A stretch of 57,055 nt of DNA from Myxococcaceae bacterium. GTDB taxonomy: Bacteria > Myxococcota > Myxococcia > Myxococcales > Myxococcaceae. The stretch spans positions 1-57,055 of the forward strand of contig JADGRA010000018.1 in NCBI GenBank assembly GCA_017881265.1, read 5' to 3'. Numbering within the stretch: position 1 is the first letter of the stretch; each line of letters begins with the position of its first letter. This document shows, piece by piece, positions 8,887 through 57,054 of this stretch. Under the pieces are notes generated by a model. It was not told where the DNA came from. It was given only the letters and a program-made list of their open reading frames with translations, and made no database searches. The position numbers and the translations under genes are program-made.

Positions 8887-11586
8887 ATGTCCAAGAGCCG
8901 CACCGCTGCCCAGGTCCGCGAGGCCTTCCTGCGCTACTTCGAGCAGCGCGGGCACACCCGCGTCCCCTCGTCCTCGCTCGTCCCCTCCAACGACCCCACG
9001 CTGCTCTTCACCAACGCCGGGATGGTCCAGTTCAAGGACGTCTTCACCGGGCGGGAGAAGCGCGACTACGTCCGGGCGACCTCCTCGCAGAAGTGTGTCC
9101 GTGCCGGCGGCAAGCACAACGACCTGGACAACGTCGGCTTCACGGCGCGCCACCACACCTTCTTCGAAATGCTCGGGAACTTCTCCTTCGGCGACTACTT
9201 CAAGGCCGACGCCGTGGCCTTCGCCTGGGACTTCGTCACCCGCGAGCTCGCCATTCCGGCGGACCGGCTGGCGGCCACCGTCTTCGCCGGGGATAAGGGC
9301 ATCCCCTGGGACGAGGAGGCGTTCGGGCTGTGGCGCAAGCAGGGGCTTCCCGAGGCGCGCATCCAGCGCCTCGGGTACAGGGACAACTTCTGGGCGATGG
9401 GGGACACCGGCCCGTGCGGCCCCTGCTCGGAAATCCATTTTCACCAGGGCGATGACCTGCCGTGCGCGGAGGAGGCAGCCGGACGGCGTTGCCTTGGCGT
9501 GGCGTGCGAATGCGACCGGTGGCTGGAAATCTGGAACCTGGTCTTCATGCAGTTCGAGCGACGGCAGAAGGATGGGCCGCTCGCGCCGCTGCCCAGGCCC
9601 TCCATCGACACCGGCGCAGGGTTGGAGCGCGTGGCGGCCGTGGTGCAGGGCCTGCGGAGCAGCTACGACACCGACCTCTTCACCCCCCTCCTCGAGCGGG
9701 CGGCCCAGCTGAGCGGCAAGCGCTACGGCCACGACGCCGCCGACGACGCGTCGATGCGCGTCATCGCCGACCACAGCCGCGCCACCGCCTTCCTCATCTC
9801 GGATGGGGTCCAGCCCTCCAACGAGGGCCGAGGCTACGTGCTGCGTCGAATCATGCGCCGGGCCATCCGCCACGGGGCTCGGCTCGGCCTGGATGAACCG
9901 TTCCTCGAGCAGACGGTGGACCGCGTCATCGAGTTGATGGCGCCGGCGTTTGGCGAACTGCGGGAAAACCGCAGCTTCGTGCTGTCGGCCACCCGCCACG
10001 AGGAGGAGTCCTTTCGCCGGACGCTGGACCGAGGCCTGCGCCTCATCGACGAGGAGATTGCGAAGGTCCGTGCCGCCCACGGGAAGCAGCTTCCCGGCGA
10101 GGTGGTCTTCTTCCTCCACGGCACGCATGGCTTCCCCTGGGACCTGACGCAGCTCATCGCGCGCGAACGGGGGCTGGACATCGACCTGCCTGGCTACGAA
10201 AGGCTGATGGAGACCGAGCGGGAGAAGGCCAGCTTCGGTGGCTCCGGCGACCGGGCCATCGCCGACTTGTGGCCCCAGCTGCGGGAGCGGCTCGGCAAGG
10301 ACACCGAATTCCTCGGCTACCAGGCGGCGGGCAACGTCGGCGACGGCCGCGTGGTGGCCCTGGTGTCCGGGGGCAGGGAGGTGCAGCAGGCGACGGCGCC
10401 GGCGAAGGTGGAGGTGGTGACCGACCGCACGCCCTTCTACGGGGAGTCCGGCGGCCAGGTGGGCGACACCGGGCGTCTGGAGACGGCCGGAGGCGCGGCC
10501 CGGGGCGCGGTGCTGGATGCCCAGCGTCCGGTTTCGAGCCTGGTGAGCCACCAGGTGCAGCTGGAGGCGGGGACGCTGCAGGTGGGGGACGCGGTCCAGC
10601 TGTCGGTGGACGCGGAGCGTCGAAACTCCATTCGCCGCAACCACTCCGCCACGCACCTGCTCCACCGGGCGCTGAAGGTGGTGCTGGGCGACCACGTGAA
10701 GCAGGCCGGCTCGGTGGTGGCACCGGACTACCTCCGCTTCGACTATGCCCACTTCCAGGCGCCCACCAGCGCCGAGCTTGAGCGCGTGGAGGACCTGGTC
10801 AACGGCTGGATTCGCGACAACGCCGACGCCTCCACCCGGGTGATGGCGCTGGACGAGGCGAAGGCGGCCGGCGCGGTGGCCCTCTTCGGCGAGAAGTACG
10901 GCGACCGGGTCCGCGTGGTCAGCGTCCACCCGGAGTCCATTGAGCTGTGCGGTGGGACGCACGTGCGGCGCAGCGGGGATATCGGCCTCTTCAAGATTAC
11001 CGGCGAATCCTCCATCGCCTCCGGCGTGCGCCGGATTGTGGCGCTCACCGGCAGCGGCGCGCTCGCTTGGGTCCGCGACCTGGAACATGAGGTGCGGCGC
11101 GCCGCGGAGGTGCTCAGGACCTCTCCCAAGGAACTGGTGAAGCGGGTGGAAGCCACCCAGAAGCGCCTCAAGGAGCTCGAGCGCGAGGTGGAGACGGTGC
11201 AGCTCAAGGCCAGCTCCGACGCCGGGGACGCCCTGGCGCAGGTGCGCGAAGTCAATGGCATCAAGGTGCTCGCCACCCGGGTCGATCCGGCGGACGCCAA
11301 GCGCTACCGCGGGCTCGCCGACCAGTACCGCGACCGCCTCAAGTCGGGCGTGGTGGTGGTGTGGGGGGAGAAGGACGGCAAGGGCCTGGTGCTGGTGGCG
11401 GCCACCAAGGACCTGGTGGCCAAGGGCCTGTCGGCCGGGGACCTGGTGCGCGAGGTGGCACGGGAAACGGGGGGAGCCGGGGGTGGGAAGGCGGACCTGG
11501 CGCAGGCCGGCGGCGCGGACCCCTCGCTGCTGGCCGCGGCGGTGGAGCACCTGGTGGCTCGCGTTGGCGCCCCCCTCCCGGGATAA
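8887..11586 (+). CDS. alaS: Alanyl-tRNA synthetase
   Basis: AlaRS charges tRNA-Ala and clears mischarged Ser or Gly. The 899-residue protein has the class II catalytic core at the N-terminus (AFLRYFEQRGH, LLFTNAGMVQFK, HHTFFEMLGNFSFGDYFK) and the GDTGPCGPCSEIHF segment. The editing domain has its zinc ligands H586-x3-H590 (HSATH) and C688-x3-H692 (CGGTH). The C-terminal C-Ala domain spans about 780-899. The length is normal. ATG at 8887 gives the standard start MSKSRTAAQVREAFL. There is no clear Shine-Dalgarno in front of it (GGGCTTGCC), so initiation may be weak or from a short leader. Confidence 0.97.
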   Translation: MSKSRTAAQVREAFLRYFEQRGHTRVPSSSLVPSNDPTLLFTNAGMVQFKDVFTGREKRDYVRATSSQKCVRAGGKHNDLDNVGFTARHHTFFEMLGNFSFGDYFKADAVAFAWDFVTRELAIPADRLAATVFAGDKGIPWDEEAFGLWRKQGLPEARIQRLGYRDNFWAMGDTGPCGPCSEIHFHQGDDLPCAEEAAGRRCLGVACECDRWLEIWNLVFMQFERRQKDGPLAPLPRPSIDTGAGLERVAAVVQGLRSSYDTDLFTPLLERAAQLSGKRYGHDAADDASMRVIADHSRATAFLISDGVQPSNEGRGYVLRRIMRRAIRHGARLGLDEPFLEQTVDRVIELMAPAFGELRENRSFVLSATRHEEESFRRTLDRGLRLIDEEIAKVRAAHGKQLPGEVVFFLHGTHGFPWDLTQLIARERGLDIDLPGYERLMETEREKASFGGSGDRAIADLWPQLRERLGKDTEFLGYQAAGNVGDGRVVALVSGGREVQQATAPAKVEVVTDRTPFYGESGGQVGDTGRLETAGGAARGAVLDAQRPVSSLVSHQVQLEAGTLQVGDAVQLSVDAERRNSIRRNHSATHLLHRALKVVLGDHVKQAGSVVAPDYLRFDYAHFQAPTSAELERVEDLVNGWIRDNADASTRVMALDEAKAAGAVALFGEKYGDRVRVVSVHPESIELCGGTHVRRSGDIGLFKITGESSIASGVRRIVALTGSGALAWVRDLEHEVRRAAEVLRTSPKELVKRVEATQKRLKELEREVETVQLKASSDAGDALAQVREVNGIKVLATRVDPADAKRYRGLADQYRDRLKSGVVVVWGEKDGKGLVLVAATKDLVAKGLSAGDLVREVARETGGAGGGKADLAQAGGADPSLLAAAVEHLVARVGAPLPG

Positions 11587-11644
11587 GTTCTTGCAAAGCG
11601 GTTGGTCCGGGCCATCGTGACACCTGGGACACCGCCTGCCCGCG

Positions 11645-14413
11645 ATGGACTTCACACCGCTCCGCATCCGCTTGCCGTTTGGCAGCGAGGAAGAGTTCAT
11701 CGCGCGCTACGGCGTGCACGTCGGCCGGGATGGCTTCTTCCTGGCCACCCGCTCCCCCAAGGACGCTGGAACGAAGCTTGTCTTCGAATTGGTGCTGGCG
11801 GACGGCGCACCGCTGCTCTCCGGCGAGGGCGTGGTGGCCCGCACGGTGGCCGGAACGCGCACCGGCATGGTGGTTCGCTTTCTCCGCCTGGACGAAGCGG
11901 GCGCCGCGCTGGTGGACCGAATTGTCTCGGCGCGTCGCCCGGCCGAGGCGACGCCGGAGGCCCCACCCGCGGCCGCGTCGGCCCCGGCGCCAGCCGCCTC
12001 GGAGGCCACCACCTGGCTCGGCGACCCGACCCGGGACGTGGCCCGCGTCACCGGCCCGAGCGGTGTCCCCTTGGCGCGGCCTGCTGCCGGCGCCCAACAG
12101 CAGACACCGCCGGCGCCCCGCGCGGCGTTCGCGCCCGCGAGGCCTGCCGTTTCTGTCCATGACGCGCCCACCTGGCCGGGAGACCCGACGCGCGATTTGG
12201 TGCGCATCGGCCCTTCCGAGGGGCCCACGCCGTGGCCGGAGCCAACCGCCAGCCCCGCGCCGTCTGCGGCACCCTCTGCCCCGACGGCCGCGAGTGCGCC
12301 CGCGCCCGGTGTCCCCATCCACCTGCGGCCGACGCCCGCCATGGGCATTCCGGAGGCGGAGGCGCTGGAGGGAATGAAAGTCCACACCGCCGTCACGCCC
12401 GTGCGGGGTATGCCGGCGCTGGGCCCGGAAGTCGTCGCCTTCCTCGGCCGGGCGGAGGCCCCACCTGCCCCCACTGGCACCGAGGACACGGTGCTGTCGC
12501 CCGCCCCCCTTCTGCAAACGCCCGTGGACACGCCGGGCGAGGCCATCCTCGAGGCCCCCCCCGAAGGGGACGCCCGCCCGGCGCCCGGCGCCGAGGGGCC
12601 GCCCGACGAGACGGACACGTCCAGGGACGCTGCGCCAGCGCCCGCCCTGGACGCCCAAGGCGCGGTCCCGACGGAGACGGCAGCGCCAGCGGCCGAGGCC
12701 ATCCCGCTTCCCTCCCCCGCCACCATCCACCCGCCCCGTGCGCCGGTGTCCCCCACCCCGGTGGCCCGCGAGGCGGCGCCGCGGGCACAGGAGGCGCGCG
12801 CGGACAAGACGCCCACCCCGGCCCTCGGGACGGCCGCCGTCGGGGCGGGCGCGGGCAGCGTGGAGCCCGGCCTGGCCCCGGCAGTGCTGGGGCTGGACGT
12901 GGGCACGGCGTGGGCCCGCATGGCGTGGGCCCATGAGGGGCGGCTAGAACTGGTCCCCGCTGACGTGGACGCCAGCCAGCAGGCGCTGTCCTGCCGTCTG
13001 GTGCGTGACGCCCACGGCGTCCTCCACGTGCTGCAGCACGGAGAGGCCGAGGAGGCCCTCTGGGTGGGCAGCCCCGTCTGCCTGCTCGGGACACGCGCCG
13101 ACTCGCCGGCCATTCGCACCCTGGTGCGGCGCTGGCCCGTCCCGGTGGTGGCCGACGAGCGGGGGGAGGTGGCATTCGACTGGGCCGGCGTCACGGTGAC
13201 TGCCGTGGAGTTGGTGGCGGCACTGCTGCGCAGCCTCCGCGCCGCTGCCGAACGGCACACCCACCGGCCCTGTACCCAAGGGGTGCTGGTGGTGCCGGCT
13301 GCCTTCACGCTGCTGCAGCGCGCGCGGCTGCGCGAGGCCGCCGAGCGCGCCGGCCTGACGGTGCTGCGGCTATTGCAGGCACCCACCGCGGCTGCACTGG
13401 CCTTCGCCCAGGACCGCGCCATGGCGCGCCGGCGAGTGCTGGTGTGGCGGATGGGCGCAGCCACCTGCGACGCCGCCGTGGTGGCGGTGTCCGGAAACGA
13501 CTTGGACGTCGTCTCCTGCGGCGGGGACGGCGCCCTCGGTGGCGTCAACTTCGACGAGCAGCTCGCCCTGGGCCTGGACAAGACGGCTCGCACCGACCCG
13601 GCCCGCCTTCGCCTGCGCGTCGCCCAGGCGGAGCGCTGCAAGGTGACTCTCAGCACCAGCGAGCGCGGAGCCGTGCCGCCGGCGGTTGCCGGAGAGGCGG
13701 TCGTCGAGGTCAGCCGAGCGGAACTCGAACTGCGCACCGCAGCGCTCGTCGAGCGCAGTGTGCTCCTCGCCCAGGACGTCCTCCGGGCTGCCGGCCTGAG
13801 TGCGGAGAACATCGACGCCCTGGTGCTCTCGGGCGGCATGGCGCACGTCCCGCACGTGCGCCGTGCGGTGGAGCAGGCCTTCGGCAAGCCAGCGGCGCCG
13901 ACGGACGTGGACGGCGGCCCCGCCCTGGGAGCAGCGCTGCTTGGCGCGGCGTTGACGACGCCCGCCGTCAGCGGACGCGCCCGCTCCAACGTGGTGGAGG
14001 TGCTGGCCGTACCGCTGGAGGCCGTGGCGCCGGAGTTTGGCCACCAGCGGGCGTTCGAGCGAAACACCCGGCTGCCGGCGGAAAAGACGCTGACGCTGAC
14101 GCTTCCCGCCAACCAGCCCCTCGAGGTGCAAATCTTCCAGGGCATGGCCCGGGCACCGGACCCGCGCAGCTTCCTCGGCCTGTTGCATTCGGCCGGTGTG
14201 GAGCGCGATGGGGAATGGGCCCTGCACCTGGGGCTGAGCGCAGATGGGCTGTTTTCTGCTGCGGTGACGCCTCCCGGCGGCAAACGCCGGACGTTGGCCT
14301 TGCAGCCCGCGCCGGCGCCGGCCGAGGCCGCGGAGGAGGTCCGGAACCTGGAGGAAGCTGACCCTGGCGCGCGGCTGCTCGGAGGCCTGAAGCGCCTCTT
14401 CGGCAGGCGGTAA
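11645..14413 (+). CDS. PilZ-like / Hsp70-like fusion protein with long Pro/Ala linker
   Basis: A 922-residue protein in three parts. Residues 1-100 look like the PilZ-related domain frequent in myxobacteria (IRLPFGSEEEFIARYGVHVG, RDGFFLATRSP). Residues about 105-410 are a low-complexity Pro/Ala/Glu linker containing two copies of a short TW-GDPTRD motif. Residues about 411-775 are an Hsp70-type ATPase domain with LGLDVGTAWARMAW, VLVVPAAF, LLQAPTAAALAFAQ and LVLSGGMAHVPHVRRAVE. A beta-rich tail (about 790-905) recalls the Hsp70 substrate domain. The phosphate-2 loop is degenerate (WRMGAATCDAAVV), so ATPase activity is uncertain. It follows alaS by 58 bases. Confidence 0.88.
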   Translation: MDFTPLRIRLPFGSEEEFIARYGVHVGRDGFFLATRSPKDAGTKLVFELVLADGAPLLSGEGVVARTVAGTRTGMVVRFLRLDEAGAALVDRIVSARRPAEATPEAPPAAASAPAPAASEATTWLGDPTRDVARVTGPSGVPLARPAAGAQQQTPPAPRAAFAPARPAVSVHDAPTWPGDPTRDLVRIGPSEGPTPWPEPTASPAPSAAPSAPTAASAPAPGVPIHLRPTPAMGIPEAEALEGMKVHTAVTPVRGMPALGPEVVAFLGRAEAPPAPTGTEDTVLSPAPLLQTPVDTPGEAILEAPPEGDARPAPGAEGPPDETDTSRDAAPAPALDAQGAVPTETAAPAAEAIPLPSPATIHPPRAPVSPTPVAREAAPRAQEARADKTPTPALGTAAVGAGAGSVEPGLAPAVLGLDVGTAWARMAWAHEGRLELVPADVDASQQALSCRLVRDAHGVLHVLQHGEAEEALWVGSPVCLLGTRADSPAIRTLVRRWPVPVVADERGEVAFDWAGVTVTAVELVAALLRSLRAAAERHTHRPCTQGVLVVPAAFTLLQRARLREAAERAGLTVLRLLQAPTAAALAFAQDRAMARRRVLVWRMGAATCDAAVVAVSGNDLDVVSCGGDGALGGVNFDEQLALGLDKTARTDPARLRLRVAQAERCKVTLSTSERGAVPPAVAGEAVVEVSRAELELRTAALVERSVLLAQDVLRAAGLSAENIDALVLSGGMAHVPHVRRAVEQAFGKPAAPTDVDGGPALGAALLGAALTTPAVSGRARSNVVEVLAVPLEAVAPEFGHQRAFERNTRLPAEKTLTLTLPANQPLEVQIFQGMARAPDPRSFLGLLHSAGVERDGEWALHLGLSADGLFSAAVTPPGGKRRTLALQPAPAPAEAAEEVRNLEEADPGARLLGGLKRLFGRR

Positions 14414-46859: not shown

Positions 46860-47465
46860 ATGAGCACGCGCACCGCCGACGAAGCGAAGCAGCGTCACCG
46901 CGAAATCCTCGAGACCGCTGCGCGGCTCATCTGCGCCCGTGGCTACGAGGCCACCTCCATCCAGGACATTGCGGATGCCTGTGGTCTGACCAAGGCCGGC
47001 CTCTACCATCACATCGAGAGCAAGGAGCACCTGCTGCTCGAAATCATGAACTACGGAATGGATGTCTTCGAGGAGCAGGTGCTCAGCCAGGTGGAGTCCA
47101 TCGCTGACCCTGTGGAGCGTCTGCGGGCCTGCATGGAGAAGAACATCCTTCTCGTCACGCGCGGCTGGAGCAAGGAAGTCACCATCATCCTGCACGAGCA
47201 CGCCACCCTCCAGGGCCGCGCCCGGAACCAAATCGACGCCCGGAAGAAGAAGTACGTGCGCTTTCTGGAGAAGACCATCACTGAGGCGACGAAGGCTGGC
47301 AAGGCCCGAGCGGTGAATCCCACCGTCGCTGCCTTCGCTTTTCTCGGCATGGTGCTGTGGATTTACAAGTGGTACCGCAAGGACGGCGCCATCGCCGACA
47401 CCGCCATCGCCCGCGGCATGGTGGACCTCTTTCTGCACGGACTGGTGCCGGTGGAGGCGCGATGA
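46860..47465 (+). CDS. aibR: TetR-family regulator AibR of the isovaleryl-CoA operon
   Basis: A 201-residue TetR/AcrR-type repressor. Its helix-turn-helix occupies about 12-60 (RHREILETAARLICARGYEA, TSIQDIADACGLTKAGLYHHIESKEHLL), followed by a helical ligand domain. In M. xanthus AibR represses aib genes and responds to isovaleryl-CoA. Identity here rests on family and on the four following genes in the same order. The ATG follows a paired palindrome. Its end overlaps aibA by four bases (ATGA), so repressor and enzymes are made from one message. Confidence 0.9.
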   Translation: MSTRTADEAKQRHREILETAARLICARGYEATSIQDIADACGLTKAGLYHHIESKEHLLLEIMNYGMDVFEEQVLSQVESIADPVERLRACMEKNILLVTRGWSKEVTIILHEHATLQGRARNQIDARKKKYVRFLEKTITEATKAGKARAVNPTVAAFAFLGMVLWIYKWYRKDGAIADTAIARGMVDLFLHGLVPVEAR

Positions 47466-48271
47466 GTCTCGCTCGCTGGACCACGCTGGCCGACCTGGCC
47501 GGCAGCGTTCCGGACGGCTCGCTGCTGGCTCCCGGCGGTTTCATGCTGGGCCGGGCGCCGATGGCGCTCGTGTTCGAGCTCATTCGACAGGGCCGACGCG
47601 ACCTCCGGGTGCTCTCGCTTCCCAATCCCTTGCCGGCGGAGATGCTGGTCGCCGCCGGTGCGGCCAGCCGGGTGGAATTCGCTTTCTCGGCGCTCACCTT
47701 GGGCGGCCGCGTCCGCCCCATGCCTTGCCTCAAGGCGGCCATCGAGGCGGGGACCATCGCCTGGGCGGAGATGGACGGCTACCGGATCGTCCAGCGACTG
47801 CGCGCCGCGGCCATGGGGCTCCCCTTCCTGCCGGCCCCGGATGCCGAGCGCTCGGAGCTGGCGAGCCTCGACCCCCCTGCCGTGGTGGTCGACCCGTTCA
47901 CCGGCGAGACCGTCCCGGTGGAGCGCGCCGTGGCCCCGGACGTCGCGCTGCTGCATGCACAGGCCGCCGACGCCGAGGGGAATCTCTTCTTCGAGGACCC
48001 CACGACCGACTTGTTGATGGCGGGCGCCGCGCGCCGTGTCCTGGCCACGGCCGACCGTCGCGTCGACCGGCTCCCCCGCGTCAGCCTGCCGGCGTTTCAG
48101 GTCGAGGCGGTCGCCGAGGTCTGGGGCGGGGCTCTGCCAACCGGGTCCGCCAGTCTCTACCCACACGACGAGGCCGACCTCCTCGAGTACCTCGCTCTCG
48201 CCGCCCAGGGCGCTGCAGCGCAGTACCTGGAACGCCGAAGTGGCGCGGTCCGCGCCCGGGATGCTGCATGA
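47462..48271 (+). CDS. aibA: AibA subunit of 3-methylglutaconyl-CoA decarboxylase (CoA-transferase fold)
   Basis: A 269-residue protein of the class I CoA-transferase alpha-subunit fold. It shows DGSLLAPGGFMLGRAPMALVFEL near the start, SALTLGGRVRPMPCLKAAIEAG, and ALLHAQAADAEGNLFFEDP. In M. xanthus the AibA/AibB pair is not a CoA transferase but decarboxylates 3-methylglutaconyl-CoA to 3,3-dimethylacryloyl-CoA. The assignment follows operon order and homology. It overlaps both aibR and aibB by four bases, which fits equal synthesis of the two subunits. Confidence 0.88.
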   Translation: MSLARWTTLADLAGSVPDGSLLAPGGFMLGRAPMALVFELIRQGRRDLRVLSLPNPLPAEMLVAAGAASRVEFAFSALTLGGRVRPMPCLKAAIEAGTIAWAEMDGYRIVQRLRAAAMGLPFLPAPDAERSELASLDPPAVVVDPFTGETVPVERAVAPDVALLHAQAADAEGNLFFEDPTTDLLMAGAARRVLATADRRVDRLPRVSLPAFQVEAVAEVWGGALPTGSASLYPHDEADLLEYLALAAQGAAAQYLERRSGAVRARDAA

Positions 48272-48990
48272 CCGCCACCCACGCCGACGCTCTTCTGGCC
48301 GCGATGGCTGCCGAGATTCGCGACGGGGACGTCGTGGCCACGGGAGTCGCCTCGCCGCTCGCCATCCTGGCCATCGCGCTGGCGAAGGCCACGCATGCCC
48401 CACGCCTGACCTACCTGGCCTGTGTCGGCTCGGTAAACCCGGACGTTCGACGACTTCACGCCTCATCCGAGGACCTGGCGTACCTCGAGCATCGACGCGG
48501 GGATATCTGCATCCCCGACCTCTTCGACCATGCCCGGCGGGGCCGCATCGACATCATCTTCTTCGGTGCGGCAGAGGTCGACGGCGCCGGTCGCTCCAAC
48601 ATGAGTGCAACCGGCTCCCTCGACCGACCGACGGTGAAGCTGCCCGGCGTTGCGGGCGCCGCGGCGCTGCGCCGTTGGGTAAAGCGTCCGGTGCTGGTGA
48701 TGCCCAAACAAACCAAGCGGAACCTGGTGGCCCGTGTCCAGGTGGCCTCCACCGTCGATGGGCGACCCACGCCTCTGCTCACCGACCTGGGGCGGTTCCA
48801 GGTTGGCGCCGATGGGGCCAGTCTCCATCGCCACCGAGCCTGGACAACGCCGGTGGAGGTCGCCGAGCGCACCGGCTTCGCCTTCACGGTCGCTGCCGAC
48901 CTCCGCACGGATGCGGCACCCGCGGAGGCCGCGCTGGCGGCGATTGCCGCGCTGGACCCGGACAATTTCAGGGAGCGGTTGGTTGGCTGA
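48268..48990 (+). CDS. aibB: AibB subunit of 3-methylglutaconyl-CoA decarboxylase (CoA-transferase fold)
   Basis: A 240-residue beta-subunit-type protein. Where CoA transferases carry the catalytic glutamate (S-E-N-G type motif), this one has YLACVGSVNP, so Cys52 replaces Glu. That agrees with the M. xanthus AibB description, in which a cysteine occupies the active site, and with loss of transferase chemistry. Other visible segments are IIFFGAAEVDGAGRSNMSAT and VLVMPKQTKRNLV. ATG at 48268 overlaps the aibA stop. Confidence 0.9.
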   Translation: MTATHADALLAAMAAEIRDGDVVATGVASPLAILAIALAKATHAPRLTYLACVGSVNPDVRRLHASSEDLAYLEHRRGDICIPDLFDHARRGRIDIIFFGAAEVDGAGRSNMSATGSLDRPTVKLPGVAGAAALRRWVKRPVLVMPKQTKRNLVARVQVASTVDGRPTPLLTDLGRFQVGADGASLHRHRAWTTPVEVAERTGFAFTVAADLRTDAAPAEAALAAIAALDPDNFRERLVG

Positions 48991-49015
48991 AGTCAGGGCA
49001 ACCCGGGAGAAACGC

Positions 49016-50056
49016 ATGGATGCGGTTGTGCTGAGGGCGTTTGGAAACTCGGAGAACCTCCGGCTGGAGTCCGTCCCGGAACCGACGGTCGGTCCCGGGG
49101 AGGTCCTTCTCCGCGTCCGCGCGTGTGGCGTCTGCTACCACGACGTCATCAACCGCCGCGGTCAGCTTCCCCGCACGAGCGTTCCAGCCATTCTTGGACA
49201 CGAGGTCGCCGGTGACGTCATCGTCGTGGGCCCGGGGGTCCAAGGCTGGGGGGTCGGCGACCGCGCGGCAACCTTGCAGCGGCTTTCCTGTGGGAGCTGC
49301 CCCATTTGCCTCTCCGGACGTCCGACGCTCTGCAAGAAGGACGCGCGTTTCTTCGGCGAAGAAATCCCCGGCGGCTACGCCTCGCTGATGGCGGCGCCGG
49401 TGGCTGGGCTGGGTCGGGTGCCCGCCGGCCTCTCGTGGGAGGCGGCGGCGACGGCCTGCTGCACCACCGGCACGGCGGTCCACGTGGTCCGTACCCGCGG
49501 CCGCGTTCGTCCGGGTGAGGTGGTGCTCGTCACCGGGGCAAGTGGTGGCGTCGGGCTCTCCGCCGTGCAGCTCGCCCGGCTCGACGGCGCCCGGGTGCTG
49601 GCCGTCACCTCCAGCGCCTCCAAAGTCGAGGCACTCGAAGCGGCCGGTGCACACGAGGTCATCGTCTCACCCAACCTCGACTTCGCCGCGGAGGTCCGCC
49701 GGCGCAGCGGTGGCGACGGCGTCAATGTGGTCCTGGAAATCGTCGGGAGCGCGACCTTCGCCCAGTCGCTGCGCTGCATCGCGCCCGGCGGGCGCCTGGT
49801 CGTGGTGGGTAACCTTGTGACTCGCGACGTGACCCTCAACCCCGGCCTGGTCATCGTCAAGGAGCTGGAAATCATCGGAGCATTCGCGACTGACCAGGCC
49901 GAACTGGAGGAGGCGCTCAAGCTGACCGCCGACCGTTCCATCCAACCTTTCATTTCGGAGGCCCTTCCCCTGGCCGACGCTGCCCTCGCGCACACGCGCC
50001 TGGAGCAGCGGGGGGTTGCTGGGCGAATCGTGCTCGTTCCACGAGCCGCCGCATGA
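49016..50056 (+). CDS. aibC: AibC, 3,3-dimethylacryloyl-CoA reductase (medium-chain dehydrogenase fold)
   Basis: A 346-residue zinc-type medium-chain dehydrogenase/reductase. It shows RVRACGVCYHDVINRRG, LGHEVAGDV, a structural zinc lobe with four Cys (LSCGSCPICLSGRPTLCKK) and the nucleotide motif VLVTGASGGVGLSAVQLA. In M. xanthus AibC reduces 3,3-dimethylacryloyl-CoA to isovaleryl-CoA with NADH or NADPH. The ribosome site GGGAG lies a few bases before the ATG at 49016. It is separated from aibB by 25 bases. Confidence 0.9.
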   Translation: MDAVVLRAFGNSENLRLESVPEPTVGPGEVLLRVRACGVCYHDVINRRGQLPRTSVPAILGHEVAGDVIVVGPGVQGWGVGDRAATLQRLSCGSCPICLSGRPTLCKKDARFFGEEIPGGYASLMAAPVAGLGRVPAGLSWEAAATACCTTGTAVHVVRTRGRVRPGEVVLVTGASGGVGLSAVQLARLDGARVLAVTSSASKVEALEAAGAHEVIVSPNLDFAAEVRRRSGGDGVNVVLEIVGSATFAQSLRCIAPGGRLVVVGNLVTRDVTLNPGLVIVKELEIIGAFATDQAELEEALKLTADRSIQPFISEALPLADAALAHTRLEQRGVAGRIVLVPRAAA

Positions 50057-50070
50057 GGAGTGGTGAAGCC

Positions 50071-51321
50071 ATGAAGCAGCAAGTCGGAATCGAAGCCATC
50101 GCCGTCGCCCTTCCACGCCGCTACATCGACCTCGGCGACCTCGCCCGGGCCCGAGGCGTCGACCCTGCGAAGTACACACAGGGCCTTGGGGGTCTGGAGA
50201 TGTCGGTCGCCGAGCCGGGCGAGGACACCGCCGCGCTGGCTGCCTCTGCGGTGGCCAAACTCCTCGCCAACCGCGCGTTGGACCCCTCGCGCATCGGGAT
50301 GCTGGTGGTGGGGACGGAAACGGGCGTCGACCACTCCAAGGCCGTCGCGTCCTACGTGCAGGGAATGCTCCGCTTTCCTCAAAGCATGCGGACCTTTGAC
50401 TGCCAGCACGCTTGCTACGGTGGGACGGCCGCCCTTAATTCGGTGGCCGAGTGGATTGCCTCTGGCGCAGGAGCGGGCCGGGTGGGCATCGCGGTGTGCT
50501 CGGACATTGCTCGTTACGGCCTCAACACGTCCGGTGAGCCGACGCAGGGCGCCGGGGCAGTGGCCATGCTGGTGTCCGAGTCCCCCGAACTACTGGCCCT
50601 CGACGTGGGCGTCAGCGGGACCTGCAGCATGGACGTGCACGACTTCTGGCGGCCCCTCGGCCGCCGGGAGGCCGTCGTGGACGGCCACTACTCCATCCAG
50701 TGCTACTTGGAGGCGGTGTCCGGAAGCTACCGGGGCTGGCGCGCAAGAGCCCTCGGACGGGACTTGATTCGTTCGGCCGAGGTTCCGTCCGAGCAGTTGG
50801 CGCGCATCGCCTACCACGTGCCCTTCTGCAAGATGGCGAAGAAGGCACACGCGCAGGTTCGGCGCTGCGACATCGAAGACCGAACGGGCAAGGCGCTCGA
50901 CGCAAGCGCCGAGGCCGAAGAGACGCCCCGGGCCGCGGCGAGCTTCGAAACTCAGGTCGCGCCCTCCCTCGGCCTGTCCGCCCGTGTCGGGAACATCTAC
51001 ACCGGCTCGCTTTACCTCAGCTTGGCCAGCCTCCTCCACAAGGAGGCGGCATTGCTGACCGGGAAGCGCATCGGCCTCTTCAGCTACGGGAGCGGCTGCG
51101 TCAGTGAATTCTTCTCTGGCGTGGTCGGGCCACGGGCCCCCACCGCCATCAACAGCGCCGGGCTGGACCGGGTCCTCGCCGACCGGGAGCGCATCGGGGT
51201 CGAGGAGTACACCCGCATCCTCGAGCTGCCGGCGGACCGGCCGCTCGGGACGCCGCCTCCGCCTGGAGCCTTCCGCTACGCGGGCACGGTGGACTACCGG
51301 CGCAGCTACGCTCGCGGCTGA
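50071..51321 (+). CDS. mvaS: 3-hydroxy-3-methylglutaryl-CoA synthase of the aib operon
   Basis: MvaS condenses acetyl-CoA with acetoacetyl-CoA to HMG-CoA. The 416-residue protein shows the nucleophile Cys115 in DCQHACYGGTAAL, IAVCSDIARYG, then the catalytic His in AYHVPFCKMAKKA, and SYGSGCVSEFFSG near the end. GGAG precedes the ATG at 50071. It is the last gene of the aib set and supplies HMG-CoA, which LiuC (not in the window) dehydrates to the AibA/B substrate. This gives isovaleryl-CoA without leucine breakdown. Confidence 0.95.
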   Translation: MKQQVGIEAIAVALPRRYIDLGDLARARGVDPAKYTQGLGGLEMSVAEPGEDTAALAASAVAKLLANRALDPSRIGMLVVGTETGVDHSKAVASYVQGMLRFPQSMRTFDCQHACYGGTAALNSVAEWIASGAGAGRVGIAVCSDIARYGLNTSGEPTQGAGAVAMLVSESPELLALDVGVSGTCSMDVHDFWRPLGRREAVVDGHYSIQCYLEAVSGSYRGWRARALGRDLIRSAEVPSEQLARIAYHVPFCKMAKKAHAQVRRCDIEDRTGKALDASAEAEETPRAAASFETQVAPSLGLSARVGNIYTGSLYLSLASLLHKEAALLTGKRIGLFSYGSGCVSEFFSGVVGPRAPTAINSAGLDRVLADRERIGVEEYTRILELPADRPLGTPPPPGAFRYAGTVDYRRSYARG

Positions 51322-51684: not shown

Positions 51685-52494
51685 CTAGACGCCTGCCAGT
51701 CCGGGCTCGATGCGCGCGAAGCCTTGGTCTGCCGCCCAGAGGTCCAGGCTTAACGAGACCAAGTCGTCCACCTCGGGAATCGCGTGGCCGTCCAGCGAGA
51801 GGTCGATGGATTTGAGGTAACGGCGGCAAGTCTCGCAGGCCTCGATGCGAGCTGTCGGGTAGCGCTCCGTGTTGAAGGCCGGCAGTTTGTCCGGGTCCTC
51901 CTCCCCGCACGCCGGACACAGGATGCGGTTCACCACCCACTCGCTCCCGCACAGGGCGCACAGCAGCACGCGCTGGGCGCCATGGCTGTTGGGGACCGGA
52001 CGTCGGGCGGCCACCCACGGCTGGCCGCCGCAGTGAGGACAGAGCCTTCCGGCCGTCGGTCGGTCCACCGGCACCTTGTTCCGGACCAGCACCTCGACAT
52101 AGGGGCGAAGTGCGGCACGGGAGAGGAAGTCCTCGCGGTCGTCCCGGGTGCCGTTCCAGTAGACGCTCAGCCGTGCCTGCGCCACTTCGGGAGGCTCCGA
52201 CAGGCGCTCGCGGGCCACCTCCGCGAGGGTGGGTGGGGCGACCTCGGCCGCATACCGGTGCACCGCCCGGAGCGGCTCCACCAGTCGGCCGCCATCGGCC
52301 TCGAGTCGTCCGGCGAGCGGGCGCGTGGCGTGCAGCGCCTGAATGGCGGCCGCCACCTCGCCCTGGACGCGGTACAGCCCGGCGGCGAACCGAAGCGGCT
52401 CTCCCGCGACGTTGCTCGAGCCAGCGAGCGCATCAGCTCGCTCGGCAGCCCGGCGGAACGCGGCGGAGATGGGCGACTTACTTTCGCTGCTCAC
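51685..52494 (-). CDS. fdhE: Formate dehydrogenase accessory protein FdhE
   Basis: FdhE is a cytoplasmic maturation factor that binds exported formate dehydrogenase apoenzymes. The 269-residue protein has a helical N-terminal part and a rubredoxin-like metal domain with CPHCGGQP, CALCGSEW, CPACGEED and CETCRRYLK, four CxxC pairs at about 150-230. Length and order match FdhE. The GTG start at 52494 lies inside the end of the cytochrome gene (17-base overlap), so it is coupled to the fdn operon. Confidence 0.92.
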   Translation of the reverse strand: MSSESKSPISAAFRRAAERADALAGSSNVAGEPLRFAAGLYRVQGEVAAAIQALHATRPLAGRLEADGGRLVEPLRAVHRYAAEVAPPTLAEVARERLSEPPEVAQARLSVYWNGTRDDREDFLSRAALRPYVEVLVRNKVPVDRPTAGRLCPHCGGQPWVAARRPVPNSHGAQRVLLCALCGSEWVVNRILCPACGEEDPDKLPAFNTERYPTARIEACETCRRYLKSIDLSLDGHAIPEVDDLVSLSLDLWAADQGFARIEPGLAGV

Positions 52495-53179
52495 CCGTCA
52501 CGTCACGGTACCAACGGGGGTGGTGCAGCCTGGCCCAGGGCTTGCTCACCGTTCCGTCCACCATCGACTCGAACGTCCCTGGATCGGCAATGGCCAGATA
52601 GACGTGCCCGATGATGAGGAGGAAGAAAGCGATGAAGGCCACGTCGTGGAGAATCCAGGACACTTCTCGGAGGGCCTGGGGGAAGACGCCCGGGAACCAG
52701 AGCACCAGGCCGGAGAGGAAGAGCGCCACGCCGCCGAGCAGTGCTATCCAGAACAGCGCCTTCTGCCCGCCGTTGTATTTCCCAGTCTCCGGGTCGGTCG
52801 ACTCGAAGCGGAGGTACTTGGCGAAGTAGGCGGGGCTGAGCCATTCCATGTCTCTGCCCGACATCACCATCTGGCTCCACCAACTGGCGGCCATCCACAG
52901 AAGGCCGACCGAGAAGAGCACCCCGAGGAACGGGTGAAGCCAGCGGCAGACCTGCAGGCCACCGAAGAGAGCCGCCATCCAGCCGAAAATGGGCGTCCAG
53001 ATGGGCATCCCGGTGAGAAAGCTGAGGATGAAGCTCGTGCCCACCAGCCAGTGCATGAGGCGCGTGGCCAGGGTGTGGCGAACAATCCGGTCGCCGACTT
53101 CCACATCCTCCAAAGAACGGGCGACCGCGATGGCTGCGTCTGCATGTCCGACGTTGGGTGGCGAGACGACGTGAGCCAT
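52478..53179 (-). CDS. fdnI: Formate dehydrogenase-N/O type cytochrome b subunit
   Basis: This 233-residue membrane subunit passes electrons from the iron-sulfur subunit through b hemes to quinone. Four hydrophobic segments are visible, with His residues suited to heme ligation: RLMHWLVGTSFILSF, RWLHPFLGVLFSVGLL, and SWILHDVAFIAFFLL with IIGHVYLAI. ATG at 53179 comes two bases after the fdnH stop, with GGAGG in front. A larger upstream frame overlaps fdnH and is discarded. Confidence 0.93.
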   Translation of the reverse strand: MAHVVSPPNVGHADAAIAVARSLEDVEVGDRIVRHTLATRLMHWLVGTSFILSFLTGMPIWTPIFGWMAALFGGLQVCRWLHPFLGVLFSVGLLWMAASWWSQMVMSGRDMEWLSPAYFAKYLRFESTDPETGKYNGGQKALFWIALLGGVALFLSGLVLWFPGVFPQALREVSWILHDVAFIAFFLLIIGHVYLAIADPGTFESMVDGTVSKPWARLHHPRWYRDVTGEQRK

Positions 53180-53181
53180 GG

Positions 53182-54057
53182 TCAGCCTCCAGTCCGGGGA
53201 GGGTTGTCGTCGTGGGGCTTCTTGGGACCCGTTCTGACGTAGTGCGTGAACAGGCCAACCAGCGTCGCGCCGATGGCGAAGATGCCAAGCGGCTTGAGAA
53301 TGCGCTTGCTGAATGTGACCGAAAGGGGCACGCGCGGGTCCTTGGGCAGGCCGTAGAGCTCGGGCTTGTCTCCGTGCGCGAGCACGGTGACCACACCGGT
53401 GCCACCCACGCCGGGCGGGTCGTAGAGCATGGCGTTGGCGAATCCGTTGGCCTGGAGCTGCTTCACCCTGGCGTGGCCGAGCTCGACCATGTCTTCCTTG
53501 GTGCCGAAGTGGAGGCAGCCGGTGGGGCAGGCTTTGATGCACGCCGGCTCCAGCCCCGAGTCCACGCGGTCAACGCACAGTGTGCACTTCGACATCTTTC
53601 CGGTCTTGGCGGAGAAGCGCGGAACATCGAAGGGGCAGCCCGTCTCGCATAGGCCGCAGCCGATGCAGTTCTCGGCGTTGACGTCGACGATGCCGTTCGC
53701 GTACTGGACGATGGCCCCCGGCGCCGGACACGCTGCGAGGCAGCCCGGGTCGGCGCAATGCATGCACTGGTCCTTGCGCATCAGCCAGGCCAGTCCGCCC
53801 TCGAACTCCTGTTCGTTGAAGCGAATCAGGTTCCAGAAATCCGCCTGAAGCGTGGGAAGCGTCTGGTAGGTGCCCACCTGCTGAGTGGGGACGACCGGCA
53901 GGTCGTTCCACTCCTGGCAGGCGACTTCGCACGCCTTGCAGCCGATGCAGGTCGATGTGTCGATGTACTTCGACACTTTGGCGAGCACGCGCAGGCCGGT
54001 GTTTTGGCCCCGGAGGGAGGCGGAGGACTGAAGGACTTCAAGGCCTTGGATGGGCAT
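53182..54057 (-). CDS. fdnH: Formate dehydrogenase iron-sulfur (beta) subunit
   Basis: A 291-residue ferredoxin-like subunit with four Cys clusters for four [4Fe-4S] centres: CIGCKACEVACQEW, CMHCADPGCLAACP, CIGCGLCETGCPF, and CTLCVDRV with CIKACP. One C-terminal membrane helix (LGIFAIGATLVGLFTHYV, about 255-275) anchors it, as in E. coli FdnH. The ribosome site GGAG overlaps the fdnG stop, giving tight coupling in the order alpha, beta, gamma, FdhE. Confidence 0.95.
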   Translation of the reverse strand: MPIQGLEVLQSSASLRGQNTGLRVLAKVSKYIDTSTCIGCKACEVACQEWNDLPVVPTQQVGTYQTLPTLQADFWNLIRFNEQEFEGGLAWLMRKDQCMHCADPGCLAACPAPGAIVQYANGIVDVNAENCIGCGLCETGCPFDVPRFSAKTGKMSKCTLCVDRVDSGLEPACIKACPTGCLHFGTKEDMVELGHARVKQLQANGFANAMLYDPPGVGGTGVVTVLAHGDKPELYGLPKDPRVPLSVTFSKRILKPLGIFAIGATLVGLFTHYVRTGPKKPHDDNPPRTGG

Positions 54058-54069
54058 CGCCGTGCTCTC

Positions 54070-57054
54070 CTAGGTGCTCTTGAGGGGCCGGCCCTTTTCG
54101 AGCCGGACGAGGAACGTCTTGAATTCCGGGGTCCACGTGTTGGCGTCCATCGCCGAGGGCGTCAGCATGTTCGCGAGCGGACCTAGGTGACCCTCCTCAC
54201 CGGTGTAGCCCCAGTGGATAGGGAAGCCGATGTGCCAGAGCGGCTTGCCGTCGACCACCATCGGCCCCAGGCGTTTGGTGACCATGGCCACCCCTTGCAC
54301 CTCGCCCCGTGCGGAGATGACGCGGACCTGCTCGCCGTTGGCGATGCCGTTCTCCTTGGCGAGCTGCTCCGGCAACTCGATGAAGAAACCCGGCTGCAGC
54401 TGGTTGAGCCGTCCCGTGTTCTTCGTCCAATAGTGGTACATCTCGGTGAGGCGGTAGGTCGTACAGACAATCGGGTACTCCGCCGCCGTACCGTACTTGT
54501 CGAACTTCGTACTGAATCGCCTGCTCGCCGGGTTGGAGGTCACCTTCGGGTGGAGCGGGTTCTGGATGGCTGCCTCAACTGACTCGTAGTGCTCGGCAAA
54601 CGGGCCGTCGGCCAGCACCGGCGCAAACAGACGCCCGCTTCCTTCAGGCAGCATGATGAAGGCGCCGAACTTGCCCGGTGGAGAGTCGGGCGCGATGTCT
54701 GGGACGTCGGGGCCACCCCACTTCTCGCCGTTCCACTGGATGCCGGGGCGGGTCGGGTCCCACGCCTTTCCGGCCGCGTCCGCCGAGGCGCGGTTGTACA
54801 TGACGCGGCGGTTGGCCGGCCAGCTGAAGGTCCACTGGTGGAACATGCCCAGCCCGCTCGGGTCGGCATTGTTGCGCCGCTGGGTATTGTTGCCGGCCTC
54901 GGTGTAGCAGCCGGTGTAGAGCCAGTTACCGCAGCTGGTGGAGCCATCGGCGCGCAGTTGCCCGAACGAGTCGAGTTGCTGCCCGGCTGCCTTGATGAGC
55001 TTCTTCGGCTCCTTGAGGTCCTTCGGGTCCTTGGGCGGCTCGAAGAGGTCTTCCAGGGCCTTGCCGTTAATCTCGCGGAGGACCTCGCCGAGGTCGGGGC
55101 TCGCCGGGTTGGTGTAGTTCCACGCCACGTTGAGGACAGCCTCCGGAAGCGCCCCACCCTCCTTCTGGTAGAGGTCCCGGACGGCCAGGAAGATGCGGGC
55201 GATGATTTCCTGGTCCGTCTTCGACTGACCAGGCGCATCCACTGCCTTCCACTTCCACTGAACCCAACGGGCTGAGTTGGTAAAGCTGCCGTCCTTCTCC
55301 GCGAACCCGCTGGCTGGGAGCTGGAAAACCTCGGTCTGGATTTCGGCCACCGGAGCGCCGCCGTACTCGGCCGGCGCTTTCCAGAAGGTGGCCGTCTCGA
55401 TTTCGTAGTTCTCGACCACCACCAGCCACTTCAACTTGGACAGCGCCGCCACCATCTTCGGCGCGTTGGGGCCGATGCTCGCCGGGTTCATTCCGGCGGT
55501 GACGAGGCCCTCAGGGCCTGGCTCCACACCGCCTGCCCGGTTGGAACTCCCCCGGTACATCTCGTCGAACAGGTACATCCAGGAGTAGTTGCCATCCGTC
55601 TTGGGCAGCCACGAGTACCCGAAGTCGTTCTCCTTGGTCGCCGCCTTGCCGTAGATGGACTTGAGCAGAGAGACCATTAACTTCGGGTAGTTCTGCCAGT
55701 AGTTCATCGACGCCCAGGCCTGGCTGTTGAGCGTGGTGGGCGTCACCTTCTGCAGGTACGTGTCTAGGTCGGGAAGCTCGCTGCGGGGCGTCGCGAGATA
55801 GCCGGACAGAATCTCGAACGTGCCACCCATGTCCGTGCAACCCTGAATGTTGGAGTGCCCGCGCAGGGCGTTCACCCCACCCCCCGGCCTGCCGACGTTT
55901 CCCAGCAACAGCTGGAGCGTCGCCGCGGCGCGAATCATCTGCACGCCGACCGAGTGCTGGGTCCAGCCGAGGGCATAGGTGATGGTCCCCACCCGCTCGG
56001 CGTTGCCGGTGGAAGTGACCACCTTGGCGACGTTGAGGAACGTCTCCTTGGGAGTGCCAGTTATCCGCTCCACCATCTCAGGCGTGTAGCGGTCGACGTG
56101 CTTCTTCAGCAGCTGGAAGACACAGCGCGGATGCTGGAGCGTGGGGTCGACGTCGTAGGAGTTGGTCGTCGGGTTCGGCTGGTACGCCCAGGCGGACTTG
56201 TCGTAGCTCTTGCTGGTGTCGTCCCACCCACTGAAGAGCCCGTCATCAAAGGCGAACTTCTCATTGATGATGTACGGGGCGTTGGTGAAGAGCTTGACGT
56301 AGTCCTCGTGGAAACGCTTGGTCTCGATGGCGTAGCGGATGATGCCATTGAGAAATGCGATGTCGGACCCGGGACGCAGCTGGGCATAGACGTCGGCGAC
56401 GGCGGCCGTCCGGGTAAAGCGCGGGTCGACCACCACCAGCTTGGCGTTGCGGGTCTTCTTCGCTTCGATGGCCCACTTGAAGCCACAGGGATGGTTCTCA
56501 GCGGGGTTCCCGCCCATGGCGAGGATGACATCGGCATTCTTGATGTCGACCCACCCATTGGTCATCGCACCGCGACCGAACGTGGCGGCCAAACTGGCCA
56601 CCGTTGGACCGTGTCATACTCGAGCTTGACTGTCTCGATACACGACCCCCAGGCCGGTCATGAACTTGTCCTGGAGGAAGTTGAACTCGTTGGTGTCGGT
56701 GCAGCCGCCAATCACGGCGATGCCTGGCGTGCGGTTGACCACCTGGCCCCTGGCGTTCTTGGCGACGAAGGTGCGGTCCCGGGTGTCCTTGATGTGCCGG
56801 GCAATCTTCTTGATGGCCTCGTCCCAGGAAATCTCTTCCCAATGGTCAGAGCCTGGACGGCGAACCTTGGGCACCGCCAGACGCAAGGGGTTGTTGATGT
56901 CGTCCCGAAGCGTCGACCCTTTGGGACAGAGCGTGCCGCGGTTGATGGGATGGTCCGGGTCGCCCTCTACGTAGACGACCGCCGGCACGACGTTCTTCGC
57001 CTTGTCGCCGAGCGTGTGAATGATGACGCCGCACGAAACCGCGCAATAGGGACA
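54070..57054 (-). CDS. fdnG: Selenocysteine-containing formate dehydrogenase alpha subunit (partial, N-terminus outside window)
   Basis: The molybdenum or tungsten bis-MGD catalytic subunit, normally exported by the Tat system. The visible 994 residues start at CPYCAVSC (N-terminal [4Fe-4S] site with LCPKG) and continue to the usual C-terminus. About 49 residues including the Tat signal are missing. After VVYRDSQARV an in-frame UGA (56614-56616) is followed by HGPTVASLAATFGRGAMTN. This is exactly the context of the selenocysteine in E. coli FdnG (QARV-U-HGP), so the UGA codes for Sec, residue 147 of the visible part. A hairpin lies 11 bases downstream. The gene is not a frameshift or pseudogene. 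Confidence 0.95.
56584..56602 (-). promoter_or_regulatory. Bacterial SECIS hairpin for selenocysteine insertion in fdnG
   Basis: On the coding strand, 11 bases after the UGA, GGTGGCC pairs with GGCCGCC (7 base pairs, one G-U) around a 5-base loop AGTTT. Position and apical G-U in the loop match E. coli-type SECIS elements bound by SelB. The loop is shorter than the AGGTCT of the E. coli fdhF element. Confidence 0.75.

What the first reader, a model, noticed from the sequence alone, without database searches (positions are those of the whole stretch)
54070..57054. Selenoprotein formate dehydrogenase in a myxobacterium
The in-frame UGA at 56614-56616 sits in the exact selenocysteine context of FdnG. 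The operon also carries the membrane subunits and FdhE. Sec-type, Tat-exported FDH suggests respiration of formate and predicts selA, selB, selC and selD elsewhere. Automatic annotation would split the gene in two.
Basis: partly seen in the sequence, partly recalled or inferred. Interest (0 to 1): 0.55.

Follow-up and report, generated by a model that had tools for sequence, protein, structure and literature searches.

The report
Selenocysteine formate dehydrogenase operon in myxobacterium
A bacterium of the myxobacterial family carries a formate-burning enzyme whose gene uses a stop codon to insert the rare amino acid selenocysteine; the reading is right, but the enzyme is a common, well-known kind.

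Summary
Minus strand 54070-57054 is one formate dehydrogenase-N alpha gene (TIGR01553, 1302 bits) with an in-frame TGA at 56614-56616; Rfam SECIS_3 scores 71.7 bits there (gathering 63). FdhB, a cytochrome-b gamma and an FdhE-like gene follow. The Tat signal is not in the window; a matching N-terminus ends another contig but differs at 3 of 16 bases where they meet. TGA is kept in 80 of 80 returned relatives and 20 of 20 further family copies. Such FDHs occur in 41 of 96 family genomes, SelA in 88, and Sec-FDH in a myxobacterium was printed in 2006 (Anaeromyxobacter, PMC1794560). Beyond the finding: the family holds two Sec-FDH types. One has an NrfD-like membrane partner (19 of 20 copies). 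The window's has the FdnI-type gamma and groups with Acidobacteriota. Ordinary, correctly read.

The parts
54070..57054 (-). fdnG/fdhA: formate dehydrogenase-N alpha subunit, selenocysteine-containing, 994 aa present, N-terminus beyond the contig end
   Evidence: TIGR01553 1301.8 bits, model 49-1009; 51.5% identity to E. coli FdnG over a 992-position alignment; best PDB sequence match 1kqf_A, 1092.1 bits
56614..56616 (-). in-frame TGA read as selenocysteine (residue 147 of the fragment, aligned with the Sec of E. coli FdnG)
   Evidence: TGA in 100 of 100 homologous loci examined
56561..56619 (-). bacterial SECIS element inside the coding sequence, at and just after the TGA
   Evidence: Rfam RF01989 SECIS_3, 71.7 bits, gathering 63; the 24-base local hairpin was matched in stability by 270 of 20000 synonymous redraws; the 59-base stretch as a whole is not unusually stable (z -0.53)
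53182..54057 (-). fdhB/fdnH: iron-sulfur beta subunit with C-terminal membrane anchor
   Evidence: TIGR01582 379.5 bits, cut-off 334.7; PF09163; 16 of FdnH's 17 cysteines shared
52478..53179 (-). fdhC/fdnI: cytochrome b556-type gamma subunit, 233 aa from the ATG chosen
   Evidence: TIGR01583 168.2 bits, cut-off 115.85, on 52478-53170; start; His at the positions of FdnI His18, 57, 155, 169
51685..52494 (-). fdhE-like accessory protein, listed GTG start overlapping the end of the gamma gene
   Evidence: TIGR01562 80 bits, below its cut-off 187.65; PF24860 38.3 bits (cut-off 27), PF24859 25 bits (cut-off 27, not reached); four CxxC motifs

Best explanation
This is a Sec-containing, membrane-bound formate dehydrogenase of the FdnGHI type. 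During translation, SelB with Sec-tRNA-Sec (made by SelA with selenophosphate from SelD) binds the hairpin just after the UGA and inserts Sec. FdhD sulfurates the molybdenum cofactor and the FdhE-like protein assists maturation. The Tat system exports the folded alpha-beta dimer, and gamma anchors it. Outside the membrane formate is oxidised to CO2 at the Sec-Mo (or W) centre; electrons pass through the iron-sulfur clusters of alpha and beta to the haems of gamma and on to quinone, and finally to a terminal oxidase. Shown here by sequence: the open frame with TGA, the SECIS match, the full Sec machinery, FdhD, the subunits and their ligand residues, two COX1 genes in the genome. Inferred from established knowledge of E. 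coli FDH-N (recalled): Sec insertion itself, metal, export, direction of the reaction, physiological role.
For: SECIS_3 over gathering. selC, selB, selA, selD, FdhD 162.2 bits against 140.9, COX1 at two places. TIGR01553, TIGR01582 and TIGR01583 over cut-off. TGA kept in 100 of 100 loci examined. In the 81 rows outside lineage A (window included) the SECIS-loop codon is AGT in all 79 that have Ser and GGT in the 2 that have Gly, against 175 AGT of 3403 other Ser codons of the gene in the 80 named loci. The 33 distinct 24-base variants in 101 rows all fold as a local hairpin with differing arms (no control was run on these folds as a set). In 96 genomes of the family, all 41 with the FDH have SelA, and the 8 without SelA lack the FDH; in several one-contig genomes (G002, G006, G007, G018, G028, G029) SelA and FDH lie on the same contig.
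Against: The 59-base SECIS stretch alone is not unusually stable (z -0.53, 59 of 200 shuffles as low), and RNAalifold over the 74 distinct sequences outside lineage A found no common structure, perhaps because the stem register varies. The SECIS and tRNA searches scored 150 of 2805 and 150 of 1080 first-look candidates, and the tRNA-Sec model passed its cut-off in 5 of 14 control genomes, which are not named individually. The FdhE-like protein is below its NCBIfam cut-off. The N-terminus is on another contig, and its last 16 bases differ from the window's first 16 at 3 places, so a second copy or mixed strains is possible. The genome is a 95.69% complete draft in 81 contigs.
Confidence: 0.94

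Rival explanations
1. The TGA is a real stop or a sequencing error, and the gene is a pseudogene or two separate proteins.
For: A mechanical ORF caller splits it.
Against: TGA at the same codon in 100 of 100 homologous loci examined, a SECIS match, full Sec machinery.
Confidence: 0.02
2. The sel genes or the FDH contig are contamination in the bin, so the host does not really couple them.
For: The host assembly is a draft in 81 contigs; selA, selB, selC, selD and FDH lie on five different contigs.
Against: Contamination estimate 0.29. SelA is in 88 of 96 family genomes, some of them a single contig that also holds the FDH. The FDH contig carries a probable aib operon, of a pathway described as possibly unique to myxobacteria.
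Confidence: 0.04
3. The enzyme works mainly as a CO2 reductase or a formate detoxifier rather than as a respiratory formate dehydrogenase.
For: Sequence does not fix the direction; other Sec-FDHs are among the PDB matches, some of which, as recalled, can reduce CO2.
Against: The partner is a cytochrome-b gamma with the four FdnI haem-ligand histidines (ligand roles recalled), which feeds quinone; two COX1 genes point to aerobic respiration.
Confidence: 0.08

Closest known systems
E. coli FdnGHI (formate dehydrogenase-N; PDB 1kqf)
   Same: Sec in the same motif, same three subunits in the same order; the His after Sec and the ALRGHSN motif aligned (catalytic His197 and Arg446 as recalled); 16 of 17 FdnH cysteines and the four FdnI histidines kept; alpha 51.5%, beta 52.2%, gamma 33.5% identity
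   Different: An fdhE-like gene is joined to the operon downstream; no fdhE is annotated in the E. coli fdnGHI stretch seen
Other Sec-FDH of the same family (lineage A here; loci L110-L126, L129, L132, L133)
   Same: Sec at the same codon in 20 of 20 copies, an FdhB relative beside it in 20 of 20, same alpha family (40 of 41 FDH-positive genomes reach the TIGR01553 cut-off)
   Different: Separate deep clade. An NrfD-type membrane protein lies beside 19 of the 20 copies (the 20th, L119, is cut short) and in none of 82 loci of the other types; no relative of the window's gamma or FdhE was found at any of the 20 (most of these loci hold only 1,500 flanking bases). SECIS loop CCCGGTCTGGG (CCCCGGTCTGGGG in one) instead of CCAGTTTGG
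Anaeromyxobacter dehalogenans FdhA selenoproteins (PMC1794560, one table passage read)
   Same: Sec-containing FDH alpha (three listed) and Sec-containing SelD in a member of the Myxococcales
   Different: Another family; which FDH type they belong to was not tested
FDH operons of Acidobacteriota, including records labelled gp7 and Thermoanaerobaculia (L030, L033, L034, L036, L045-L047)
   Same: 73-78% identical alpha, same Sec codon; FdhB and gamma in all seven, FdhE in six (L033 ends soon after gamma)
   Different: Host phylum (by record title)

Membership tests
Formate dehydrogenase-N (FdnGHI type) | alpha subunit over the TIGR01553 cut-off with Sec (or Cys) at the active site | tested here: met
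   1301.8 bits against 814.2; TGA aligned with the Sec of FdnG
Formate dehydrogenase-N (FdnGHI type) | four-cluster beta subunit with C-terminal anchor | tested here: met
   TIGR01582 379.5 bits; PF09163; 16 shared Cys columns
Formate dehydrogenase-N (FdnGHI type) | cytochrome b556 gamma subunit with haem-ligand histidines | tested here: met
   TIGR01583 168.2 bits; His18/57/155/169 positions kept; that these are the ligands is recalled
Formate dehydrogenase-N (FdnGHI type) | Tat signal on alpha | tested here: inconclusive
   Not in the window; MQMQRRTFLKG... at the end of contig C1 fits but differs at 3 of 16 bases where it meets the window
Formate dehydrogenase-N (FdnGHI type) | formate:quinone activity | not testable with these tools
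   needs an assay
Bacterial Sec-decoding trait | selA, selB, selC and selD in the genome | tested here: met
Bacterial SECIS (Rfam SECIS_3) | gathering score reached at the UGA | tested here: met
   71.7 bits against 63
FdhE | curated cut-off of TIGR01562 | tested here: not met
   80 bits against 187.65, though Pfam's FdhE_C is met and four CxxC motifs are kept; called FdhE-like for that reason

The most novel reading that the evidence does not exclude
This myxobacterial family holds two separately acquired Sec-dependent formate dehydrogenases with different membrane partners (NrfD type and FdnI type), and the FdnI type moved between Acidobacteriota and Myxococcota: a cross-phylum transfer of a selenoprotein operon that only works where the recipient already decodes Sec and its SelB reads the incoming SECIS.
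Probability: 0.5. Interest if true: 0.35.

Novelty: new member of a known kind. Interest (0 to 1): 0.2.

Why it matters
It confirms that a stop-codon reading made from raw sequence alone was right, and that its prediction (a complete selenocysteine system elsewhere in the genome) could be tested and held. It adds Sec-dependent formate oxidation to the likely repertoire of a small-genome relative of myxobacteria (4.4 Mb, against 9-13 Mb for many in the family), and shows two distinct Sec-FDH types in one family, one of them grouping with Acidobacteriota. It does not change the picture of selenium use in bacteria; Sec-FDH in a myxobacterium has been in print since 2006.

Tried and rejected
Stop codon or sequencing error: rejected by 100 of 100 homologous loci with TGA. 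Folding the whole 59-base SECIS for unusual stability gave nothing (z -0.53), and RNAalifold on 74 distinct sequences outside lineage A gave no common fold; the informative tests were the loop codon and the synonymous redraws. Pairwise covariation was not counted with the tool for it. A Tat-model search of the own genome missed the N-terminus (2 matches elsewhere); a protein query found it at the end of contig C1. Synteny of the genes upstream on C1 with relatives was uninformative (one weak match). No tRNA lies in the window itself.

Literature: searches listed no papers; the listings (2 papers; 3; 1) showed none whose title or abstract start is on Sec-FDH in myxobacteria. But a passage of PMC1794560 (table; other passages) lists Anaeromyxobacter dehalogenans with three FdhA selenoproteins, so the finding's title is not new. 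PMC5029168 (passages) gives FDH alpha and SelD as the most widespread bacterial selenoproteins.

Transfer between Acidobacteriota and Myxococcota: not resolved. In the careful tree the 12 Myxococcota-side rows are one side of a branch with support 35/76 only; a clade of the three same-family rows of the window's type is rejected (p-AU 0.026), as is one clade of these with six lineage-A rows (p-AU 4.26e-05) (groups chosen after the first tree; the program warns that long branches meet).

Full report
What is there. The window is a whole contig (G000:C38, 57,055 bases) of a 4.44-Mb draft genome in 81 contigs, 95.69% complete. The minus strand from 57054 to 54070 is one reading frame, interrupted only by TGA at 56616-56614. 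Read through, it is formate dehydrogenase-N alpha (TIGR01553, 1301.8 bits, cut-off 814.2), 51.5% identical to E. coli FdnG over a 992-position alignment, with PDB 1kqf_A as the best match. The TGA aligns with the Sec codon of FdnG, and the neighbouring His and the ALRGHSN motif are kept (the catalytic roles are recalled). Downstream follow FdhB (53182-54057), a cytochrome-b gamma subunit (52478-53179; start two bases after the FdhB stop) and an FdhE-like gene (51685-52494, its listed start overlapping gamma). FdhB keeps 16 of FdnH's 17 cysteines; gamma keeps the histidines at FdnI positions 18, 57, 155 and 169. The FdhE-like protein reaches only 80 bits of the required 187.65 in NCBIfam but passes Pfam's FdhE_C; FdhE_central is just missed (25 against 27).

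Is the TGA selenocysteine? Rfam SECIS_3 scores 71.7 bits (gathering 63) at 56561-56619, the only family over its gathering score in the window and the only SECIS_3 match found in the genome (150 of 2805 candidates scored). Synonymous choice supports the hairpin: in the 81 rows outside lineage A (window included), the codon of the apical loop is AGT in all 79 rows with Ser and GGT in the two with Gly, while AGT is 175 of 3403 (5.1%) of the other Ser codons of the gene in the 80 named loci; ACG is used for the Thr at the foot of the stem in all 101 rows. These rows are related and not independent. The local hairpin of the window is matched in stability by 270 of 20,000 synonymous redraws. The 33 distinct 24-base variants all fold as a hairpin, without a control on the set. 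Against: the 59-base stretch as a whole is not unusually stable, and RNAalifold found no consensus across the 74 distinct sequences outside lineage A.

The prediction tested. All four are there: tRNA-Sec at C15:97116-97210 (67.3 bits, cut-off 47; ARAGORN anticodon tca), SelB on C35 (309.4 bits, cut-off 242.25; winged-helix domains PF09106 and PF09107), SelA on C68 (539.6 bits), SelD on C49 (377.1 bits). SelD has its own in-frame TGA, reading FSHCAG-U-AAKL. In the 14 control genomes the same models passed their cut-offs in 5 (tRNA-Sec), 2 (SelB), 1 (SelA) and 2 (SelD). FdhD is on C61 (162.2 bits, cut-off 140.9), and two COX1 genes suggest aerobic respiration.

Tat export. The window lacks the N-terminus. 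A search found MQMQRRTFLKGTAAVGVGLAFFDLSEARAELRLLKIARTTETRSTCPYCA at the very end of contig C1 (68321-68464). The last 16 bases of C1 and the first 16 of the window's minus strand differ at 3 places, all at third codon positions that leave the residues unchanged. Either this is the same locus in a mixed-strain bin or there is a second copy; the FDH body itself has one match in the genome. Of the 80 relatives, 77 could be read upstream of residue 1; 64 of these 77 carry a strict twin-arginine pattern. Of the 13 that miss it, 10 were printed: nine have K, D, Q or N before the RR and one is cut by its contig end.

How common. In 96 genomes of the host's family, 41 have an FDH alpha with one in-frame TGA (E at most 1e-100; 40 over the curated cut-off) and 88 have SelA. 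All 41 have SelA; the 8 without SelA have no such FDH; 47 have SelA without it. For the 20 lineage-A copies (19 genomes) the TGA was checked to be at the Sec codon; for 20 further genomes it was only counted. PMC1794560 (2006, table passage) already lists Anaeromyxobacter dehalogenans, of the order Myxococcales, with three FdhA selenoproteins and Sec SelD. The finding is ordinary in kind.

Two types. A quick tree of 102 FDH alphas separates 20 family copies (lineage A, 19 genomes) from the window's clade by a long branch. A smaller careful tree agrees, and forcing the window, L031 and L035 together with six lineage-A rows is rejected (p-AU 4.26e-05; one model, LG+G4; long branches meet; group chosen after the first tree). 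Twenty FDH-positive genomes were not placed in a tree; their two-piece match pattern is that of most lineage-A copies. An NrfD-type protein (Pfam in L131 and L132) lies beside 19 of 20 lineage-A copies, the 20th being cut short, and in none of the 82 other loci compared; FdhB relatives are at all 20, but no relative of the window's gamma or FdhE. Among the 80 named loci FdhB is found in 78, gamma in 74 and FdhE in 69; L049 lacks all three although its locus continues about 6 kb, and the misses among L027-L047 lie at contig ends. The window's clade of 22 rows mixes Myxococcota-side records with ten Acidobacteriota at 69-78% identity to the window. Direction and date of any transfer are not resolved: the 12 Myxococcota-side rows are one side of a branch with weak support (35/76), while a clade of the window with the two other family members of its type is rejected at p-AU 0.026, which does not favour simple descent within the family.

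Host. Beside the FDH operon lie a TetR regulator, a CoA-transferase gene, a further ORF in the place of its second subunit (no Pfam hit), a zinc-type dehydrogenase and HMG-CoA synthase. This matches in kind the five-gene Aib operon, of a pathway described as possibly unique to myxobacteria in PMC9131029 (passages read). The FDH contigs of G081 and G082 have the same lengths as RPRB01000106.1 and JADGQZ010000150.1, both labelled Myxococcaceae; I infer that the host's family is that one.

Changes made on checking: the lineage-A anchor claim was widened from two loci to 19 of 20 copies, the Anaeromyxobacter precedent was added, and interest was lowered from 0.22 to 0.2 for that precedent.

Noticed in passing
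window 46860-51321 (+): Probable aib operon: TetR regulator (46860-47465), CoA_trans gene (47381-48271), an ORF in the place of the second CoA-transferase subunit (48313-48990, no Pfam hit), zinc-type dehydrogenase (49007-50056) and HMG-CoA synthase (50053-51321), as in the alternative isovaleryl-CoA pathway of myxobacteria.
   Followed up: partly
G000:C49:106875-107807 (L023 1477-2532): SelD is itself a selenoprotein gene, with an in-frame TGA in FSHCAG-U-AAKL.
   Followed up: partly
G000:C1:68321-68464 (L140 end): N-terminal Tat piece of an FDH alpha of the same type, cut by the contig end; 3 of 16 bases differ where it meets the window.
   Followed up: partly
L110-L126, L129, L132, L133 (family genomes): The more common Sec-FDH of the family has an NrfD-type membrane protein beside it in 19 of 20 copies; in L132 a CMD-family and a peroxiredoxin-like gene stand upstream, with a divergent sigma-54 activator gene.
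   Followed up: partly
family survey: 47 of 96 genomes have SelA but no Sec-FDH of this kind, so some other selenoprotein presumably keeps the system there.
   Followed up: no
G000:C35, L018 about 12350-14277: SelB lies in a long open frame (1059 codons stop to stop) that overlaps the ORF before it (10698-11678, Hsp33-like by eye only), so its start is uncertain.
   Followed up: no
L049 (record titled Candidatus Brocadiaceae): A Sec-FDH alpha whose locus continues about 6 kb downstream without a recognisable relative of the window's FdhB, gamma or FdhE.
   Followed up: no
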